Source of the DNA: a virus
Strand: one strand, 5' to 3'
Length of the DNA stretch: 32,807 bases
Virus record (IMG/VR): IMGVR_UViG_3300049893_000782
Coordinates: 1-32,807 of that record
Below are positions 3,014-31,471 of the stretch, one piece after another. A program made the translations under genes and the position numbers. Below the pieces are notes generated by a model. It did no database searches, was not told where the DNA came from, and saw only the letters and a list, made by a program, of their open reading frames with translations. Within the stretch, counting starts at the first letter, position 1. Each line of letters begins with the position of its first letter.

Positions 3014-3919
3014 TCAACCCTCAATCAGATCCCAAATAATCCCGGTCACGTTGAAGTCCAACAAGATGGCCTTCTCATAACCATTCACGAACGCACGACC
3101 AGCAGGGTTCTCGATGTTGTAGATACCGAAGTCAATGACCGTGGTACCATCACCATTCATGACCCATCCGTAGATCGAGCCTTCTTTTGTTCGCGGCAGA
3201 CCGAGCATGTCGTAGACCTCATTCAGGAATACGTGCCCGCGTGCGCGCAGCATGTCATTTACGTGGTTCTGCTGAATGCGGAGGAAATATAGATTCGTCT
3301 CCGCGCTCTTCTGCCACTGGGTCGAATATTCATCGAAGAACTTGGCGAAGCCACTGGTGGTCTTGTCTTTGACCGTCATGACCTTGACTTTCTGCTTCGT
3401 CACGGTGCCGTCTTCATTGACGACTTTCTCGTTCGTGGATGATTCGTAGATCCCCAGGCGATAGTTGCGATCAACATCAGGCCCGAGCTCTTCGACAACG
3501 CGCTTGCGATATGCGGCGAAACCTTCAGCGAGAAGATTGTAGCCAGCGATCAAACCGACCTCGCGGCGTTTCATGATCCCATGAGATGACAGGATGGATG
3601 CGATCGACAACACGCCAATACCAACAGAGGGTCCGTAGAGCTTGGCGAAATCGAGGCCAGCATAGATATAGGTCAGACCAACAGCCTGTTGCTTCTCTTC
3701 GGGAGCAGCGTCGCCTTCATCGATGGTCTTGAGATTTTCTTTCACACCTTCAACGATAGCTGGTGCTTTCAAGGTAGCCTTCGCCGCCATTACGGCAGCC
3801 ACGACAATACCCGTCAACCCAAGACCTAACAGGATCTCAGGTGAGTGCTTCTTCACGACCAATGCACCACGATTGATCGCACGCACAGCTTTTGTCTGCA
3901 CTGTAGCAAGACTGTTCAT
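3014..3919 (-). CDS. DUF6353-type phage membrane protein, copy 1
   Basis: 301 residues with two predicted membrane segments (about 28-46 and 95-112). The first contains KHSPEILLGLGLTGIVVAAVMAAKAT, a signature I associate with DUF6353 proteins of Gram-positive phages (quoted in part: KHSPEILLGLG then VMAAKAT). The middle has GPSVGIGVLSIAS and YRKRVVEELG, and the C-terminus FVNGYEKAILLDFNVTG. A paralogue lies at 9254-10036. Start ATG 3919 overlaps the stop of the preceding gene (ATGA), and an AGAAGGAG ribosome site is present. The frame continues past its TGA for 50 codons (2861-3013). Function is unknown; inner membrane location is inferred. Confidence 0.88.
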   Translation of the reverse strand: MNSLATVQTKAVRAINRGALVVKKHSPEILLGLGLTGIVVAAVMAAKATLKAPAIVEGVKENLKTIDEGDAAPEEKQQAVGLTYIYAGLDFAKLYGPSVGIGVLSIASILSSHGIMKRREVGLIAGYNLLAEGFAAYRKRVVEELGPDVDRNYRLGIYESSTNEKVVNEDGTVTKQKVKVMTVKDKTTSGFAKFFDEYSTQWQKSAETNLYFLRIQQNHVNDMLRARGHVFLNEVYDMLGLPRTKEGSIYGWVMNGDGTTVIDFGIYNIENPAGRAFVNGYEKAILLDFNVTGIIWDLIEG

Positions 3920-7614: not shown

Positions 7615-8466
7615 TCAGTCTAGATCGCCCTCTTCCAAGTTCCGTTCGAAGTCTTTCTTGAAGAAGGGATGAGGTTTGGCTGTCAGCATCTGAATGAGCA
7701 TCTGATGCTTAGGACTTCGTTCAAGTCCAAGATTGATGACAGCTCTCGATGGGCCCAGATCAGGGTTTTCATGCGGAATGTTTGCGTTTGACCAAGACTG
7801 TGCATTAAAAGTACCGCAATTGCACATCCATCCAGAACCATAAGCAAACACATTCACAGTTCTACGACATTGACAACAGGACTCTCCCGTGAAGCCATTG
7901 AAGTTCTTCCATGTCTCAGCCATCTCTGTGATCTCGGCTGCTGTATAGGATTTGACATTGTCGTGATCACCTAATTGACGTGCGCGACCTTTCAACATTG
8001 TTCCCCAACCATCGTTTACCCGATCAATATCAGCCATGTCTTCGATCATCTTAGTTCCCCACCAGAAACGGTAGAGAGCAGTGGACATGTCATCTGATGT
8101 TGAGCATGTTATTCGAAAGCCAGCTCGATGGAGAGCAATATAGTTCAGCAGTGAGAGCATTGAATCAACAATTGGAACCTCAAGGGCCCAATGGCGGAAC
8201 ATGTGCCGAGCATTGATCCAAATAACGCGGAGCTTTGCTTGCGGGCGATTGAACTTGTCAGCGTTCTTGGTGAGGCTGTGGAAGAAGAAGCGAATGCGAC
8301 CAGGAAGACCGTGGAACCGCCAGGCGCTGTCTTTCCAAATATAGAGTCGTCCCCAGTTCACAAGAGCTTTCTGCTCTCCAGATGGTTTGTGGGATAGATC
8401 GTGCTTCCACATGATGACGAACATGAGAATCTGGATCTCGTAATAGAAATTACCTTTGAGTTTCAT
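7615..8466 (-). CDS. Unknown protein with a cysteine-rich, zinc-ribbon-like C-terminal half
   Basis: 283 residues, not recognised. Many tryptophans and arginines; a GESCCQCRR segment (C197, C198, C200) and a MCNCG segment (C215, C217) could hold one metal ion. The N-terminal MFVIMWKHDLSHKP is only weakly hydrophobic and not a clear signal. The ribosome site (AAAGGTGA) is modest. It is the largest gene between the two DUF6353-type copies and stands directly upstream of the non-coding region 6925-7614. A nucleic-acid-binding role is only inferred from the cysteines. Confidence 0.72.
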   Translation of the reverse strand: MKLKGNFYYEIQILMFVIMWKHDLSHKPSGEQKALVNWGRLYIWKDSAWRFHGLPGRIRFFFHSLTKNADKFNRPQAKLRVIWINARHMFRHWALEVPIVDSMLSLLNYIALHRAGFRITCSTSDDMSTALYRFWWGTKMIEDMADIDRVNDGWGTMLKGRARQLGDHDNVKSYTAAEITEMAETWKNFNGFTGESCCQCRRTVNVFAYGSGWMCNCGTFNAQSWSNANIPHENPDLGPSRAVINLGLERSPKHQMLIQMLTAKPHPFFKKDFERNLEEGDLD

Positions 8467-8545
8467 ATCGACCTGTCACCTTTCGTTTCAAAAATTTGAA
8501 GTAGCCAATTACCAACGCTAGAAGTAGTTTGAGTATTAGCCGCAT
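8450..8545 (-). CDS. Very small single-helix membrane protein
   Basis: 31 residues: a hydrophobic helix (LILKLLLALVIGYF, about 3-16) and a basic tail. ATG 8545 follows AGGATTATATT. It overlaps the start of the 283-residue gene by 17 bp, suggesting coupling. The short length limits confidence. Confidence 0.5.
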   Translation of the reverse strand: MRLILKLLLALVIGYFKFLKRKVTGRYETQR

Positions 8546-8554
8546 AATATAATC

Positions 8555-8689
8555 CTAGCGAAAGATCAACACGAGAATCCCAATCAATGTGAAGATAATG
8601 ATTGGTAGTCCTTTTGCGCGTCGAACTTTGCGAATCTGGGATATGAAAGCAGCACGTCTGGCAGCGAGGAGTTCGGGAGGGTAGTCCAT
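8555..8689 (-). CDS. Very small single-helix membrane protein
   Basis: 44 residues: a basic N-terminal half (QIRKVRRAKG) and a C-terminal membrane helix (LPIIIFTLIGILVLIF, about 28-43). ATG 8689 lies 6 bp after the stop of the previous gene and lacks a good ribosome site, so it may depend on coupled translation. Positive residues before the helix predict an N-in orientation. Confidence 0.55.
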   Translation of the reverse strand: MDYPPELLAARRAAFISQIRKVRRAKGLPIIIFTLIGILVLIFR

Positions 8690-8695
8690 ATATAT

Positions 8696-8926
8696 CTACG
8701 CGAAGTAGTATCGCTCTCCTTCAGCCAGGAAATAACCAGCACGCATTCCAGCCGCACCACCGAATACGACCTTGCTTCCGGGAACAGCATCTGTGAGTTC
8801 TTTCTTCGCGGCCTCGTTGAGCTCATAGGATTCGGTCAAAAGCAAGTTGGACAAATGCATTTGAGCAAGATCGGTTCGTCCAGCATTGATTGCAGCTATG
8901 ACTTTGTTTATCAGTTCAGTATACAT
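8696..8926 (-). CDS. Small soluble protein, unknown
   Basis: 76 residues. A helical N-terminal half (ELINKVIAAINAGRTDLAQMHLSNLL) precedes a glycine-containing end (VVFGGAAGMRAGYFLAEGERYYFA). I chose ATG 8926 for its GAAAAGGAG site. It shares its general plan with the 86-residue protein at 10536-10796 (short helix, NA/NRCAI-LLVT, aromatic C-terminus), which may be a distant relative. It starts just after a terminator. Confidence 0.7.
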   Translation of the reverse strand: MYTELINKVIAAINAGRTDLAQMHLSNLLLTESYELNEAAKKELTDAVPGSKVVFGGAAGMRAGYFLAEGERYYFA

Positions 8927-9253: not shown

Positions 9254-10036
9254 TCACCACAACTTTGTTGGTTTGTTCGTGAACGTCAGTACGACGCATG
9301 GGACGTTGCCTGAAGCGAGTTTCGCTGAAATATCAATCTCCAGCAAACCCTTCTCTACGTCCCAACCGATATCACGTCCACTCTCCACGGAATCGAGACC
9401 CAATTCGTAATATAGGTCGTTGATCGGGAGTTGCATCTCTTTGAGAAGACGGTGATTGAATTCGTTGATCGTTCGCTTGATGTCCTCTACATCCCCTTTG
9501 AAATATCGGCCAGTGTAGGCATCATAGCAAAGAGTATCACCGAGACCGCTTACGATGATAGCTTTAGATTCCAACGGATTTTTTTTTAACTCGTCGGCAG
9601 CAATATCAGCGCGGATCTTCTTCTCTTTATTCTCGCCGATCGTTTCAACAACCTTCGCCTGGTATTCTTTGAGAGTGGATTCAGCAACTGCAAATAAGCT
9701 TGAGAGTGCGGCCGTTCGGCGATTGCTGATTGATGTTGCGCCAATGACGCATCCGATGCTCACCATACCCATTAGAGTAGATGGAGTATAGACCTTCCAG
9801 GTCAGTTGGATAGTATCAGCAAGGTTGATCGGGACATCGTATCCAGTTCCGTATTCATCATAACGGAAATTGCGTTCATGTTCGAGGATCTCCATCGCCT
9901 TGGGTGTTGCTTTTACTGCCATGACGACGGTGGATATGAATCCAGCAACTCCAAGCCCTGTGAGGATCGTGGGTGAGTGCTTGGTAAGCGTCCGTCCAAA
10001 TTGACGGGCAGCGTTAGTGATTAGGCTGAGATCCAT
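9254..10036 (-). CDS. DUF6353-type phage membrane protein, copy 2
   Basis: 260 residues, paralogous to the protein at 3014-3919. It has membrane segments at about 24-42 and 85-103, with TKHSPTILTGLGVAGF and VVMAVKATPKAM in the first, and PSTLMGMVSIG, SNRRTAALSSL and EYQAKVVETIGE in the middle. The C-terminal domain is shorter than in copy 1 and lacks the extension seen there. GAGGAAG precedes ATG 10036. It overlaps the 97-residue gene by 23 bp. Function is unknown; membrane location is inferred. Confidence 0.87.
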   Translation of the reverse strand: MDLSLITNAARQFGRTLTKHSPTILTGLGVAGFISTVVMAVKATPKAMEILEHERNFRYDEYGTGYDVPINLADTIQLTWKVYTPSTLMGMVSIGCVIGATSISNRRTAALSSLFAVAESTLKEYQAKVVETIGENKEKKIRADIAADELKKNPLESKAIIVSGLGDTLCYDAYTGRYFKGDVEDIKRTINEFNHRLLKEMQLPINDLYYELGLDSVESGRDIGWDVEKGLLEIDISAKLASGNVPCVVLTFTNKPTKLW

Positions 10037-24420: not shown

Positions 24421-26163
24421 TTACGCCTGTTTGCGCTCGATCACCATGGCGGTCTTCGGCATGAGCAAGGAGCCAGAGACGCGGGTTTCGATCAGGTATT
24501 TCTCCTGATTGAAATCGATATCGAAGTCACTGAAGGTGTTCATCTGACCACCCTTGTCGGAGCCGTAGGTGTAGTCAACCGGATTGACCATGATGCCGAG
24601 CAGGTCAGCGGTGAAAGCGGGGCTGACGTTATCGCGCTCGAGACCGGTCATCTGCTCGACTTCGATGATATCGTTCACACGCAGTTCAGCAGCGAGTTCC
24701 TGAACGGTGCGATACAGACGGCGCTTCTGTGAGTCACGGACCAACAGCATGCCATTGAGGACTTCGTTGGAGACGTACAGATTGGGCAGACCAGTACCCT
24801 TGAGGTTCACACGAGCAACCTGGATCGCATCGATGATCGCAACCCAATCGGTGACGGTGGATTCGAGGGTCAGGTAGTGGACGAAGACGGAGCTGTCGCC
24901 ATAGATCGGGCGAATCTTCTCGGGGTTGATGGCGTCGTCATCGGTACCAAAGGTACGACCATCGCCGATCAAACCAGCGCGCGCAACTTCCTCTTCCAGC
25001 ATGAAGCGCATTTCTTTCCACATCCAGGCGACCACATCGAAGTCGGTGATGTCGATGATATCATCGCGATCCAACTTCTGTTTCTTGTAGACGGTGGTAG
25101 GTTCGGTAACGCGCTTGAGCACCGCGAAGACCTGTTCGACCTTCTCGTTACCGGTGATATAACCCTTGGCGCGAGCGGCATCCGGGGTCAGATCCGCCCA
25201 AATTTTCTTGATGCGGGAGAAGGGGGTGTGGCGAGTGCCAGACATCCAGCCCTTGACCCAGCCCATGCGGCGGGTTTCGAACGAAGGTTCGTTGTCCAGC
25301 AAGCGAGCATCGGGGAATAGATCGCCGATATTGTCGATGCCGTAAGTGCCAGCGTGAGCGAGGAAGGCATCACGGAAGGAACCGCGATCCTTGGCGTCCT
25401 TGAAGACGGCGGTCGCGAATTCGGTCAACTGAGCGTGAGTCAGGCGAGGGCCGCCATCATCTGAAGCATTGAATACGTTTGTTTTCATGAAATTTTCTCC
25501 TGATTCATCGGATTGGGATAGTTCGTCGCCGGACTGACCTTCAAGTGCTTTGGCGACAATTGCATAAAACACTTTGCGTTGAATATCGTTCATTGACGCG
25601 ACGACCTGTTCGACCGTTTGATCTTCTTCGGTAGCCGCATGTTCAACAACAGCTTCTTCTTTCGTCTCGTCATCAGCATGTTTGACTTCTGGGAAATCAA
25701 TACCCAGATCCATCGTGATGATCGCTTCATCTTCGGAGATGGAGGCATCTGAACCATCGTTATGAGCGAAGTTCAAATAGTCGATGACGGCGCCAGGATT
25801 GGCTCCAGCAAGGACGAGACTTACTTCACGGATATTGCCCTTGTGGACGATCTTGCTCTTTTCCACGAGACCATTGGCGTAGATCGACAACGCCTCAATA
25901 TCCTTGTGTGCAACAACCTGGCGAGCTTGCTGAGCAGGCGTACCATCATTGAAGACACAATATGCGTACACACCATCGTCACGATGTTCAAGGATCGCGT
26001 GGCCGAGAATATTGGCAGGTTCGTTATGGAGATGTTGCCAGACCAAAGGAACCCGTTTCCCGTCCATGTGCTTGAAGGCATCTTTCGCAATGGTTCGACC
26101 GTCTGTGCAAACGACATTAACCTTCGTCGCCCAGCCTGCGAAATCGTATTTATTTACTGCCAT
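24421..26163 (-). CDS. Fused prohead protease and major capsid protein
   Basis: 580 residues. Residues 1-130 show an S78-type prohead protease with LVWQHLH (His44 candidate), ALSIYAN (Ser93 candidate) and EVSLVLAGANPGA. Residues about 135-225 are acidic and low in complexity, like a scaffold or delta domain. From about 226 to 580 an HK97-fold capsid protein follows (DRGSFRDAFLAHAGTYGI, ESTVTDWVAIIDAIQVAR, LYVSNEVLNGMLLV, EKYLIETRVSGSLLM). The protease would cut the shells during maturation. Fusion of protease and capsid is known in several phages. Position after the portal is canonical. Confidence 0.92.
   Translation of the reverse strand: MAVNKYDFAGWATKVNVVCTDGRTIAKDAFKHMDGKRVPLVWQHLHNEPANILGHAILEHRDDGVYAYCVFNDGTPAQQARQVVAHKDIEALSIYANGLVEKSKIVHKGNIREVSLVLAGANPGAVIDYLNFAHNDGSDASISEDEAIITMDLGIDFPEVKHADDETKEEAVVEHAATEEDQTVEQVVASMNDIQRKVFYAIVAKALEGQSGDELSQSDESGENFMKTNVFNASDDGGPRLTHAQLTEFATAVFKDAKDRGSFRDAFLAHAGTYGIDNIGDLFPDARLLDNEPSFETRRMGWVKGWMSGTRHTPFSRIKKIWADLTPDAARAKGYITGNEKVEQVFAVLKRVTEPTTVYKKQKLDRDDIIDITDFDVVAWMWKEMRFMLEEEVARAGLIGDGRTFGTDDDAINPEKIRPIYGDSSVFVHYLTLESTVTDWVAIIDAIQVARVNLKGTGLPNLYVSNEVLNGMLLVRDSQKRRLYRTVQELAAELRVNDIIEVEQMTGLERDNVSPAFTADLLGIMVNPVDYTYGSDKGGQMNTFSDFDIDFNQEKYLIETRVSGSLLMPKTAMVIERKQA
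25486..25502 (-). promoter_or_regulatory. Internal ribosome site and start for the capsid part
   Basis: Within the fusion an in-frame ATG (25488-25486, residue 226) follows CAGGAG (25502-25497) with an 8-nt spacer. It would give a free capsid protein of 355 residues ending at 24421, beginning MKTNVFNASDD. The gene could thus make two products: a fused protease-capsid and excess capsid. Confidence 0.55.
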
Positions 26164-27471: not shown

Positions 27472-27849
27472 TTAACCGTTTCGAAGCCAGGCAGTATAAG
27501 CCGCATTGTAAGTGTCGGCATTCTTGTTGCTCATGCTAGTGAACATTCTTACCGTGTCCATTATCAAATATGCAGAAATGAATGCACTTACAACCTTTGC
27601 TGCTTTCTTTACTTTCTCTTGTTTGAGCAGTTCTTTGTATTTCAAATTCTTCTGCTCATTCAAGAACTTCTGAGCTTGTTCTGGGGTTACTTGTTTTCGG
27701 CGAATGATCTTGTGATCTCCGTAACGTTTAGTTACGATTGATAACTTACCACCGGCTTTACTGAGATGTCTTGTAGATGGTGTTAAGTTTCGACGAACTC
27801 CCCATTTCATTCCAGGGATACCCCAGTGAATTAATGGTCTATCGTTCAT
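27472..27849 (-). CDS. HWGIPGMKWG-tagged small protein, copy near portal
   Basis: 125 residues starting MNDRPLIHWGIPGMKWGVRR, the conserved N-terminal tag found on many Gram-positive phage head-region proteins (usually HHGI-GMKWG). The rest is basic, helical and has one possible membrane or hydrophobic segment (about 87-103, VVSAFISAYLIMDTVRM). The function of the tag is not established. It lies between large terminase and portal. A second tagged protein is at 31064-31471. Confidence 0.8.
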   Translation of the reverse strand: MNDRPLIHWGIPGMKWGVRRNLTPSTRHLSKAGGKLSIVTKRYGDHKIIRRKQVTPEQAQKFLNEQKNLKYKELLKQEKVKKAAKVVSAFISAYLIMDTVRMFTSMSNKNADTYNAAYTAWLRNG

Positions 27850-29615: not shown

Positions 29616-30161
29616 TTACTCACTTGTCGATGTTTTGTTGTACCCGATTCCACCATTATTAAAGGCTAGTGCTCTCTTGTATGTGTCTGGATCGGTTTCC
29701 ATATGATCAAGAAAGAACATTATAGAATCTAAAGCTTGTCTTGGATACAACAAATTTTGTTCGTAGTCCATCCAGAGTACAGGAAAGGGGTATGCCGTTA
29801 GGTAGTGACCCCAAAAACCCTGATACTGTAGATGACGTAATATTGCATGTTCCCCATATTTCTCTCGTAGGGTTAATGGATTCCGGTAGGCATATATAAA
29901 CCTAATGTTTGGTATAAGATATGCCGTAGACCATAGAAAACGATAAAGTGGCGGGAATTTAACTCCCCAAACGGAATGTTTGGCGTTTCGCTTCAACACT
30001 GTTTCGATAAAATCTCGTTCAGTTTCAACCTTAGCGAATTCAGCATCTTCATAGGTTCCATCTGTCAACCAGGTTTCACCCATAAATATACCCAAGTTAG
30101 CTAAAGTTCCAGCGATAAGCGATGTTCCTGAGTGTGGAGCTCCGGCCACAAAAATGGTCAT
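29616..30161 (-). CDS. Sulfotransferase-like P-loop protein
   Basis: 181 residues from ATG 30161 (ATG 30170 is also open). The start MTIFVAGAPHSGTSLIAGTL contains the PAPS-binding P-loop of sulfotransferases (GAPHSGTS, about 7-14), LGIFMGE follows, VWGVKFPPLYRFL lies mid-way and FIYAYRNP (88-95) corresponds to the second cofactor motif. VLWMDYEQNLLYPRQALDSI fits the C-terminal helix region. Predicted to transfer sulfate from PAPS, or to bind a nucleotide, with an unknown acceptor. At 181 residues it is shorter than most family members. It sits among packaging genes, overlapping the SPRY-like gene by 4 bp. Confidence 0.82.
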   Translation of the reverse strand: MTIFVAGAPHSGTSLIAGTLANLGIFMGETWLTDGTYEDAEFAKVETERDFIETVLKRNAKHSVWGVKFPPLYRFLWSTAYLIPNIRFIYAYRNPLTLREKYGEHAILRHLQYQGFWGHYLTAYPFPVLWMDYEQNLLYPRQALDSIMFFLDHMETDPDTYKRALAFNNGGIGYNKTSTSE

Positions 30162-30784
30162 TGGCTCCATGTGCTATATCCAGTCGGAACTGGAAAGACA
30201 AATGGAGTTGCACCAAAGTTAATCGTCAACCATGCCTCGAGAGTTCCATAGGAATCAGTTCTGCGAAATGGTCTTACGAATGGAACATATGGTTGTCCAC
30301 TCGGAGTAAACGTCCATCCTGGAGAAGTACCAGTTACAGGATCTGCTCCGGTATTCCACCGTCCATCGGTATAGGATATAGCAGACAACCAGATTTTTCC
30401 AGCATTAATATCAACAGCAAGCCTTGACGGATAAGTCGCACCAAGTCGTGGAGTCGCTCCCATAACAAAACCAGTTCCATTACTGGCTTGTGTTGGGGTT
30501 AGCGAATTTAAACCAAACTGGATCTGACCAGCATTGAAGTTATCAAATACCCGCCAAACCTCGAGATAGAACTTTCCACTTGTTTTAGCAATGCTTGAAC
30601 GAGCACTTCCCAATTTAGTCCCATAACCAACATAGTCTGTGATCCTTGCTGTGAGATCGCCATCACTTAAGGTGACATCTTTCAATTTTGCTGGATTTGG
30701 ATCGAGGGTTGCGTAAACTGTAGGGGGCGGTCCGGGCTTAACCGATATGAATGTCGGACCAATTCCGACTCCTATCTTGCCCAT
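30158..30784 (-). CDS. SPRY-like domain virion protein
   Basis: 208 residues. A proline-rich start is followed by a SPRY-like beta sandwich: TLDPNPAKLKDVTLSDGDL, SIAKTSGKFYLEVWRV, IQFGLNS, LAVDINAGKIWLS, and the end LTINFGATPFVFPVPTGYSTW. SPRY domains recognise protein or glycan ligands and occur in phage tail and head-fibre proteins. Position next to head genes suggests a capsid fibre or decoration (inference). ATG 30784 lies 1 bp after the previous stop; a longer frame would overlap it fully. Confidence 0.76.
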   Translation of the reverse strand: MGKIGVGIGPTFISVKPGPPPTVYATLDPNPAKLKDVTLSDGDLTARITDYVGYGTKLGSARSSIAKTSGKFYLEVWRVFDNFNAGQIQFGLNSLTPTQASNGTGFVMGATPRLGATYPSRLAVDINAGKIWLSAISYTDGRWNTGADPVTGTSPGWTFTPSGQPYVPFVRPFRRTDSYGTLEAWLTINFGATPFVFPVPTGYSTWSQ

Positions 30785-31063: not shown

Positions 31064-31471
31064 TTAAGATGAACTTGCATTTTGAACCAGTTTCAGTAGT
31101 TCAGGAAGACCCTTTTCTACTGCACTGGCAACGTATTTTGACGCCAGTTGTTTTCCAGCATTTGTGAGAACCTCGGTAACGAATTTCCTACCTGGTCCAG
31201 CGTCAATTGCCGATAGATCTTTCAGCTGCTTTTCGAGTTGAAGTCTTGTAGTGAGCTTCTTCAGTTCATCATTGCTCATCTCACTAACTTTCTTCTTCCT
31301 CAACCCGGCTACTGTCTTGTGATCCTCACTCTGGCGAGCTTGGGCTGCGGCACGTTTAGCGGCAAGATCGACTCCATACTTTTGTTTGACGGAACGATCC
31401 ATATGATCCCGCATTTTGCGCCGAATACCCCATTTCATTCCGGGTATACCCCAGTGAAATAAATCGTTCAT
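31064..31471 (-). CDS. HWGIPGMKWG-tagged protein, copy near terminase small subunit
   Basis: 135 residues starting MNDLFHWGIPGMKWGIRRKMRD. The tag is the same as in 27472-27849 but the rest differs: a long charged helical region (AAKRAAAQARQSEDHK, SNDELKKLTTRLQLEKQLKDL) and a C-terminal helical end. The helical charged body resembles scaffold-like proteins. AGAGGAGG precedes the ATG, which overlaps the connector stop by 4 bp. Confidence 0.8.
   Translation of the reverse strand: MNDLFHWGIPGMKWGIRRKMRDHMDRSVKQKYGVDLAAKRAAAQARQSEDHKTVAGLRKKKVSEMSNDELKKLTTRLQLEKQLKDLSAIDAGPGRKFVTEVLTNAGKQLASKYVASAVEKGLPELLKLVQNASSS

What the first reader, a model, noticed from the sequence alone, without database searches (positions are those of the whole stretch)
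29616..30161. Sulfotransferase-like gene inside the packaging module
A PAPS-type P-loop (GAPHSGTS) and a second FIYAYRNP motif mark a sulfotransferase-like enzyme directly between a SPRY-like virion gene and terL, overlapping the former by 4 bp. Sulfation by a phage is rarely reported. Targets might be virion glycans, host surface glycans (exclusion of other phages) or small molecules. Coupling to the SPRY-like gene hints at modification of, or action with, that protein.
Basis: partly seen in the sequence, partly recalled or inferred. Interest (0 to 1): 0.72.

Follow-up and report, generated by a model that had tools for sequence, protein, structure and literature searches.

The report
Phage sulfotransferase-like gene beside terminase
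A soil-type tailed phage carries, wedged between a probable virion gene and its DNA-packaging motor gene, a small homologue of the bacterial enzymes that add sulfate to surface sugars; such genes are more widespread in uncultured phages than annotation suggests, but what any of them sulfates is still unknown.

Summary
The minus-strand ORF 29616-30170 (184 aa, or 181 aa from the ATGA-coupled start at 30161) is a sulfotransferase-superfamily protein. A profile of nine bacterial relatives, built without it, finds it at 103 bits over its full length; a profile of 17 phage relatives finds it at 84 bits. Those profiles lead to sulfotransferases in the PDB, not to kinases. Its nearest kin are short alphaproteobacterial proteins; those on Roseobacter plasmids sit in LPS/EPS clusters. 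TerS, HNH, a 121-aa gene, DUF7211, TerL and portal keep one order across about 70 related phage loci. The window adds three genes (gp87, SPRY-like, sulfotransferase-like) between DUF7211 and TerL, an insert no fetched relative carries.

Phage sulfotransferase genes are not rare. One motif scan of IMG/VR gave 49 candidates. In about ten of twelve contigs examined they sit with glycosyltransferases, sugar or methyl transferases, or APS kinase (the PAPS maker), often in head-tail connector modules. Best reading: a late-expressed glycan sulfotransferase.

The parts
29616..30170 (-). Sulfotransferase-superfamily protein, 184 aa (181 aa from the ATGA start at 30161)
   Evidence: Leave-one-out profiles 103 and 84 bits; Pfam Sulfotransfer_3 E 4.6e-4, below cut-off; bacterial relatives
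30120..30143 (-). 5'-PAPS loop equivalent, residues 10-17 GAPHSGTS; His13 where the nine bacterial kin have Arg
   Evidence: Alignment A4
30045..30050 (-). Glu41-Asp42, Glu invariant and Asp nearly invariant in the subfamily; candidate catalytic base (inferred)
   Evidence: Alignment A4
29952..29969 (-). W68-G-x-K71-x-P73 motif; Lys71 aligns with the Lys of the KDP motif of tyrosylprotein sulfotransferases
29877..29900 (-). 3'-phosphate motif FIYAYRNP (residues 91-98); Arg96 invariant, canonical Ser at +8 absent (Lys104)
   Evidence: consensus RxxxDxxxS from PMC11625862
30158..30829 (-). SPRY-like protein of unknown function, translationally coupled to the sulfotransferase gene
   Evidence: ATGA overlap; weak phage matches
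30786..31049 (-). gp87, phrog_12296 ('tail fiber protein'); homologues lie upstream of TerL in phages RHph_Y25 and DSS3P8 and just after the major capsid gene in phage immuto
27865..29613 (-). Terminase large subunit
   Evidence: phrog_9 2.6e-102; 75-79% identity to actinophage and soil IMG/VR TerL
31064..31471 (-). DUF7211-type gene that directly precedes TerL in most relatives; upstream border of the three-gene insert
   Evidence: 61 of 69 relatives with DUF7211 upstream have it within 100 bp of TerL

Best explanation
The gene encodes a member by descent of the sulfotransferase superfamily, from the short, RNA[KR]HSVWGxKxP-bearing subfamily that bacteria keep on Roseobacter plasmids in surface-polysaccharide clusters. 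It came into this phage with, or beside, two virion-type genes, in a three-gene accessory insert between DUF7211 and terL. It is transcribed with the late genes and its translation is coupled to the SPRY-like gene. The protein would bind host-made PAPS in its P-loop (G10-S17) and through Arg96, hold the leaving group with Lys71, and move sulfate onto a hydroxyl of a glycan. The glycan is most likely one displayed on a virion appendage (gp87 or the SPRY-like protein), or otherwise a host-surface polysaccharide. Shown: homology, conserved motifs, insert anatomy, gene overlap, and recurrent phage neighbourhoods of sulfotransferases with glycosyltransferases and APS kinase. Inferred: late expression, PAPS use by this copy, catalysis, glycan acceptor, virion target.
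For: Leave-one-out profiles at 103 and 84 bits, the former over residues 3-171. Bacterial kin on Roseobacter plasmids lie in LPS/EPS clusters: three of four next to annotated sulfotransferases, and one (L083) among glycosyltransferases and glf. The subfamily profile hits tyrosylprotein and cytosolic sulfotransferases in the PDB (best 3.6e-7) and no kinase is listed up to E 0.1. Invariant or near-invariant G10, T16, E41, D42, G69, K71, P73, R96, Y136. The insert gp87-SPRY-ST is absent from all 80 TerL relatives fetched, whose gene order is otherwise conserved. Among other phages, sulfotransferase genes adjoin APS kinase (L129, 4-bp overlap; L126/G462, between two), two GT1 (L106), GT2 (L119), GT9 (L098), a sialyltransferase PHROG (L135), FkbM and MptE-like genes (L125), a cytidylyltransferase (L141), and several sit in head-tail connector modules.
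Against: His13 replaces the P-loop Arg/Lys that stabilises the transition state, and the 3'-site Ser is missing (PMC11625862). The direct Pfam score is below the curated cut-off (20.9 against 27 bits). No GT1 or GT2 glycosyltransferase and no APS kinase were found in the 32.8 kb window, which may be a fragment. No structure could be predicted. The phage neighbourhoods that carry glycosyltransferases belong to other sulfotransferase lineages; the window protein groups with bacterial ones (90/87).
Confidence: 0.5

Rival explanations
1. Same enzyme, different target: it sulfates host surface polysaccharide or lipid late in infection, masking receptors on cells and debris so that progeny are not lost to re-adsorption and competing phages are excluded.
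For: The closest kin lie in bacterial LPS/EPS clusters; no GT1 or GT2 glycosyltransferase was found in the window to build a virion glycan.
Against: It is overlapped with a probable virion gene in the late module, where exclusion of competing phages would come late; several phage sulfotransferases sit inside head-tail connector modules.
Confidence: 0.25
2. A catalytically dead or weak sulfotransferase fold kept as a PAP(S)-binding or structural partner of the SPRY-like protein.
For: His13 in place of Arg/Lys and loss of the 3'-site Ser; long branch (1.49 changes per site).
Against: Open frame without stops, with Glu41, Lys71, Arg96 and Tyr136 all kept. PHSGT loops recur in phage proteins that pass a Sulfotransfer cut-off (L193 31.5 and L142 36 bits for Sulfotransfer_3, L169 for Sulfotransfer_1).
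Confidence: 0.18
3. A protein-tyrosine sulfotransferase acting on a virion protein tyrosine rather than a sugar.
For: Tyrosylprotein sulfotransferases are the best PDB matches of the profiles; window MDYEQNLLYPRQALDSIMFFL resembles TPST2 YEQLVLHPRRSLKLILDFL.
Against: Bacterial kin lie in polysaccharide clusters, phage homologues beside glycosyltransferases; the TPST match reflects the shared superfamily core.
Confidence: 0.07
4. Another P-loop NTPase or kinase with a chance resemblance.
For: A P-loop alone is not specific; direct Pfam score sub-threshold.
Against: Three separate profiles lead to sulfotransferases; no kinase family matched the protein.
Confidence: 0.02

Closest known systems
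Pfam Sulfotransfer_3 (PF13469) bacterial proteins in surface-polysaccharide clusters (for example Roseobacter plasmid genes at L082-L085)
   Same: Full-length homology at 27-30% identity, P-loop, ED, VWGxKxP, R[ND]P and YE motifs, similar length (about 200 aa)
   Different: Phage-borne, in the packaging module; P-loop His instead of Arg
Phage Sulfotransfer_3 genes in OM43 phages and Synechococcus phage S-SRM01 (PMC10580990)
   Same: Same Pfam family, phage-borne, function unknown ('remains unclear')
   Different: Different hosts and genomes; their position and sequence were not compared here
Head-tail-connector sulfotransferase clade in IMG/VR (L089, L098, L115, L119, L131, L135)
   Same: Sulfotransferase homologue embedded in a virion-morphogenesis module
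   Different: Separate well-supported clade (100/99); mostly accompanied by glycosyl- or methyltransferases; canonical PRSGTS loop
Tyrosylprotein sulfotransferase 1/2 (TPST)
   Same: Best-matching solved structures; P-loop, Lys of KDP, Arg and YEQ elements align
   Different: Eukaryotic, Golgi-anchored by a transmembrane segment and larger; the window lacks the P-loop Arg and the 3'-site Ser
Virion glycosylation in mycobacteriophages Che8 and Rita (reported in PMC11256854)
   Same: Precedent for phage-encoded sugar modification of the capsid
   Different: Glycosyltransferases, no sulfation; unrelated genes

Membership tests
Sulfotransferase superfamily (by descent) | Significant full-length profile similarity to family members | tested here: met
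   103 and 84 bits by leave-one-out profiles; subfamily profile hits PDB sulfotransferases at 3.6e-7
Pfam Sulfotransfer_3 (PF13469) | Score over the curated cut-off of 27 bits | tested here: not met
   20.9 bits; bacterial relatives L085, L202, L203 and L204 pass
Canonical PAPS sulfotransferase | 5'-PSB loop with catalytic Lys or Arg | tested here: not met
   His13; glycines and Thr are kept; definition from PMC11625862
Canonical PAPS sulfotransferase | 3'-PB Arg | tested here: met
   Arg96 invariant in A4 and in A3
Canonical PAPS sulfotransferase | 3'-PB Ser (RxxxDxxxS) | tested here: not met
   Lys104 at +8; by inspection of A4 only L082 has Ser there
Canonical PAPS sulfotransferase | Catalytic base Glu or His | tested here: inconclusive
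   Glu41 invariant in A4 but its position in the fold is unknown
Canonical PAPS sulfotransferase | Beta-sheet PAPS-binding fold | not testable with these tools
Canonical PAPS sulfotransferase | PAPS-dependent sulfate transfer | not testable with these tools
   Needs an assay
Head-tail-connector phage sulfotransferase clade | Falls in that clade on the tree | tested here: not met
   Window groups with bacterial proteins at 90/87
Tyrosylprotein sulfotransferase | Acts on protein tyrosine | not testable with these tools
   Only similarity of the core

The most novel reading that the evidence does not exclude
Phages repeatedly and independently carry dedicated sulfation cassettes (sulfotransferase with glycosyltransferases and sometimes their own APS kinase) inside virion-assembly modules, so that some phages build virions bearing sulfated glycans; the window is one such case with a single-enzyme cassette.
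Probability: 0.25. Interest if true: 0.75.

Novelty: new member of a known kind. Interest (0 to 1): 0.45.

Why it matters
Papers that note sulfotransferases in phage genomes say their function is unclear (PMC10580990). The anatomy here and in the related phage contigs narrows the question to something testable: a probably late, glycan-directed sulfotransferase beside virion genes, and in other phages an APS kinase that would make the PAPS donor. If virions or infected-cell surfaces carry phage-directed sulfate, that is a new kind of chemical decoration affecting adsorption and exclusion.

Tried and rejected
Close relatives of the protein in IMG/VR and GTDB contigs by peptide patterns: none, nor for its bacterial relatives L082 and L203 in IMG/VR. 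Annotated phages: nothing for this protein even at E 10 beyond chance, and nothing for L082 or three IMG/VR phage sulfotransferases (L106, L115, L109). Motif scans with PHSGT: most hits were chance or other sulfotransferase lineages. SPRY-like neighbour: no close relatives in IMG/VR, no PDB match. Sulfotransferase in the wider phage group: none in 44 related records, many of them fragments. Kinase or other P-loop class: considered, rejected on profiles. Recent horizontal transfer judged by base composition: GC3 does not differ from the neighbours, so an old or ameliorated gain, or a donor of like composition.

Full report
Observation. The ORF is on the minus strand at 29616-30170. It overlaps the upstream SPRY-like gene as ATGA if translation starts at the second ATG (30161), and terL follows after 2 bp. 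The frame is a real gene: it has full-length relatives at 27-30% identity on Roseobacter plasmids (E 5e-10 and 7e-10) and up to 33% in alphaproteobacterial genomes (E 5.7e-16). Profiles made without it still find it at 103 bits (nine bacterial proteins) and 84 bits (17 phage proteins).

Enzyme class. Direct Pfam evidence is weak: Sulfotransfer_3 E 4.6e-4, 20.9 bits against a cut-off of 27. The relatives make the case. L085, L202, L203 and L204 pass the Sulfotransfer_3 cut-off, and the subfamily profile finds tyrosylprotein sulfotransferase 1 at 3.6e-7, then other sulfotransferases, with no kinase listed up to E 0.1. The 18-row alignment of phage homologues finds TPST2 at 1.2e-12 over most of its length; that value is partly carried by the other rows. 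Residues invariant across the ten-member subfamily are G10, T16, G27, E41, G69, K71, P73, R96 and P130; nearly invariant are T5, R13 (His in the window), G15, G31, D42, W68, Y136, E137 and P143. K71 aligns with the Lys of the TPST KDP motif. Two canonical features fail: the P-loop Arg/Lys is His13, and the Ser of the 3'-phosphate motif RxxxDxxxS is absent, as in most of the subfamily (consensus and role from PMC11625862). Proteins with a PHSGT loop nevertheless pass a Sulfotransfer cut-off in other phages (L193, L142, L169), so His there need not abolish function. The protein therefore belongs to the superfamily by descent; that this copy is active is likely, not shown.

Origin. On a tree of 27 sequences the window protein sits with the bacterial proteins (support 90/87), apart from the other phage sulfotransferases; its exact place among them is unresolved. 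Its bacterial kin on plasmids lie in LPS or EPS clusters: beside two sulfotransferases, mannose-1-phosphate guanylyltransferase and glycosyltransferases (L082); glycosyltransferases and UDP-galactopyranose mutase (L083); rfbF/G/H and a sulfotransferase (L084); sulfotransferases and GSCFA proteins (L085). The five chromosomal-assembly relatives were read only in short flanks; one of them (L206) lies next to another sulfotransferase-like gene by eye. Base composition gives no sign of recent transfer.

Place in the phage. TerL is 75-79% identical to TerL of Rhodococcus, Gordonia and Streptomyces phages and of soil IMG/VR contigs. In 67 fetched relatives the 121-aa gene lies upstream of TerL, and in 61 of 69 relatives with DUF7211 upstream it lies within 100 bp of TerL. 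TerS, HNH, the 121-aa gene, DUF7211, TerL and portal keep one order. The window puts gp87, SPRY-like and sulfotransferase genes between DUF7211 and TerL, and no relative has any of the three in the stretch fetched. Some relatives hold other extra genes between TerS and TerL; by my reading of the translations (not family-tested) these include amidases, LamG-like and collagen-like proteins and a hydrolase. gp87 matches phrog_12296 'tail fiber protein'. Its homologues lie upstream of TerL in Rhizobium phage RHph_Y25 and Roseobacter phage DSS3P8, and just after the major capsid gene in Flavobacterium phage immuto. It is thus probably a small virion protein. The SPRY-like label rests on weak matches only.

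Wider picture. One motif scan of IMG/VR (VxGxP[RHQ]SGTS) returned 62 stretches, of which I took 49 as sulfotransferase-like; 47 of the 49 records match Sulfotransfer_3 at E 0.01 and 26 exceed its cut-off. Some of the 49 are near-copies of each other. Neighbours in a sample of twelve: APS kinase overlapping the sulfotransferase by ATGA (L129); two GT1 (L106), GT2 (L119), GT9 (L098), sialyltransferase PHROG (L135), FkbM and MptE-like (L125), cytidylyltransferase (L141), methyltransferases (L115, L089); none found for L109, L148 and, among the ORFs tested, L131. In G462 (record of L126) an APS kinase lies between two sulfotransferase genes. Six of these (L089, L098, L115, L119, L131, L135) form one well-supported clade (100/99). 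Five of the six lie by head-closure, Neck1, connector or tail-terminator genes; L135's nearest identified virion gene is a head maturation protease 1.7 kb away, and its own downstream neighbours gave no PHROG match. APS kinase makes PAPS (general knowledge), so its coupling to sulfotransferase genes argues that phage members of the superfamily use PAPS. No annotated phage in INPHARED matched this protein or the three IMG/VR homologues tried by tblastn.

Mechanism. I commit to a late-expressed glycan sulfotransferase. The acceptor class (sugar) follows from the bacterial and phage neighbourhoods; the virion as target follows from overlap with a probable virion gene in an accessory insert of the packaging module. 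Both are inference. Absence of GT1/GT2 glycosyltransferases and of APS kinase in the window means that host PAPS, and a host-made or unsampled glycan, would be needed. The host-surface target is the main rival.

Known and new. Sulfotransferases in phage genomes have been noted in OM43 and cyanophages, glacier-ice phages and a rhizobiophage, with function unknown. The window gene is a new member of that kind.

Noticed in passing
L129:7340-8116 and 8116-8724 (IMGVR_UViG_3300020027_000006): Phage operon with an APS kinase (PF01583, 4e-38, with a possible C-terminal cytidylyltransferase-like part) overlapping a sulfotransferase gene by ATGA: donor maker and donor user together.
   Followed up: partly
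G462 (record of L126), contig positions 28684-30802: APS kinase gene lies between two Sulfotransfer_3 genes in one phage contig.
   Followed up: partly
L089, L098, L115, L119, L131, L135: A well-supported clade of phage sulfotransferases; five of six lie by head-tail connector genes, most with glycosyl-, sialyl- or methyltransferase neighbours.
   Followed up: partly
L003, L014, L046, L048, L052, L063 between the TerS/HNH genes and TerL: Region upstream of TerL is an accessory spot in this phage group; by eye it holds amidase-like, LamG-like and collagen-like proteins and a hydrolase in different relatives.
   Followed up: partly
window 3014-3919 and 9254-10036: Two copies of a DUF6353 protein in one phage (Pfam 1.1e-68 and 2.1e-73).
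   Followed up: no
window 24421-26163: Head maturation protease and major capsid protein fused in one 580-aa gene, as in Gordonia phages.
   Followed up: no
window 31064-31471 and 27472-27849: Two DUF7211-type genes (HWGIPGMKWG near the start) flank TerL; the family is repeated around TerL in many relatives.
   Followed up: no
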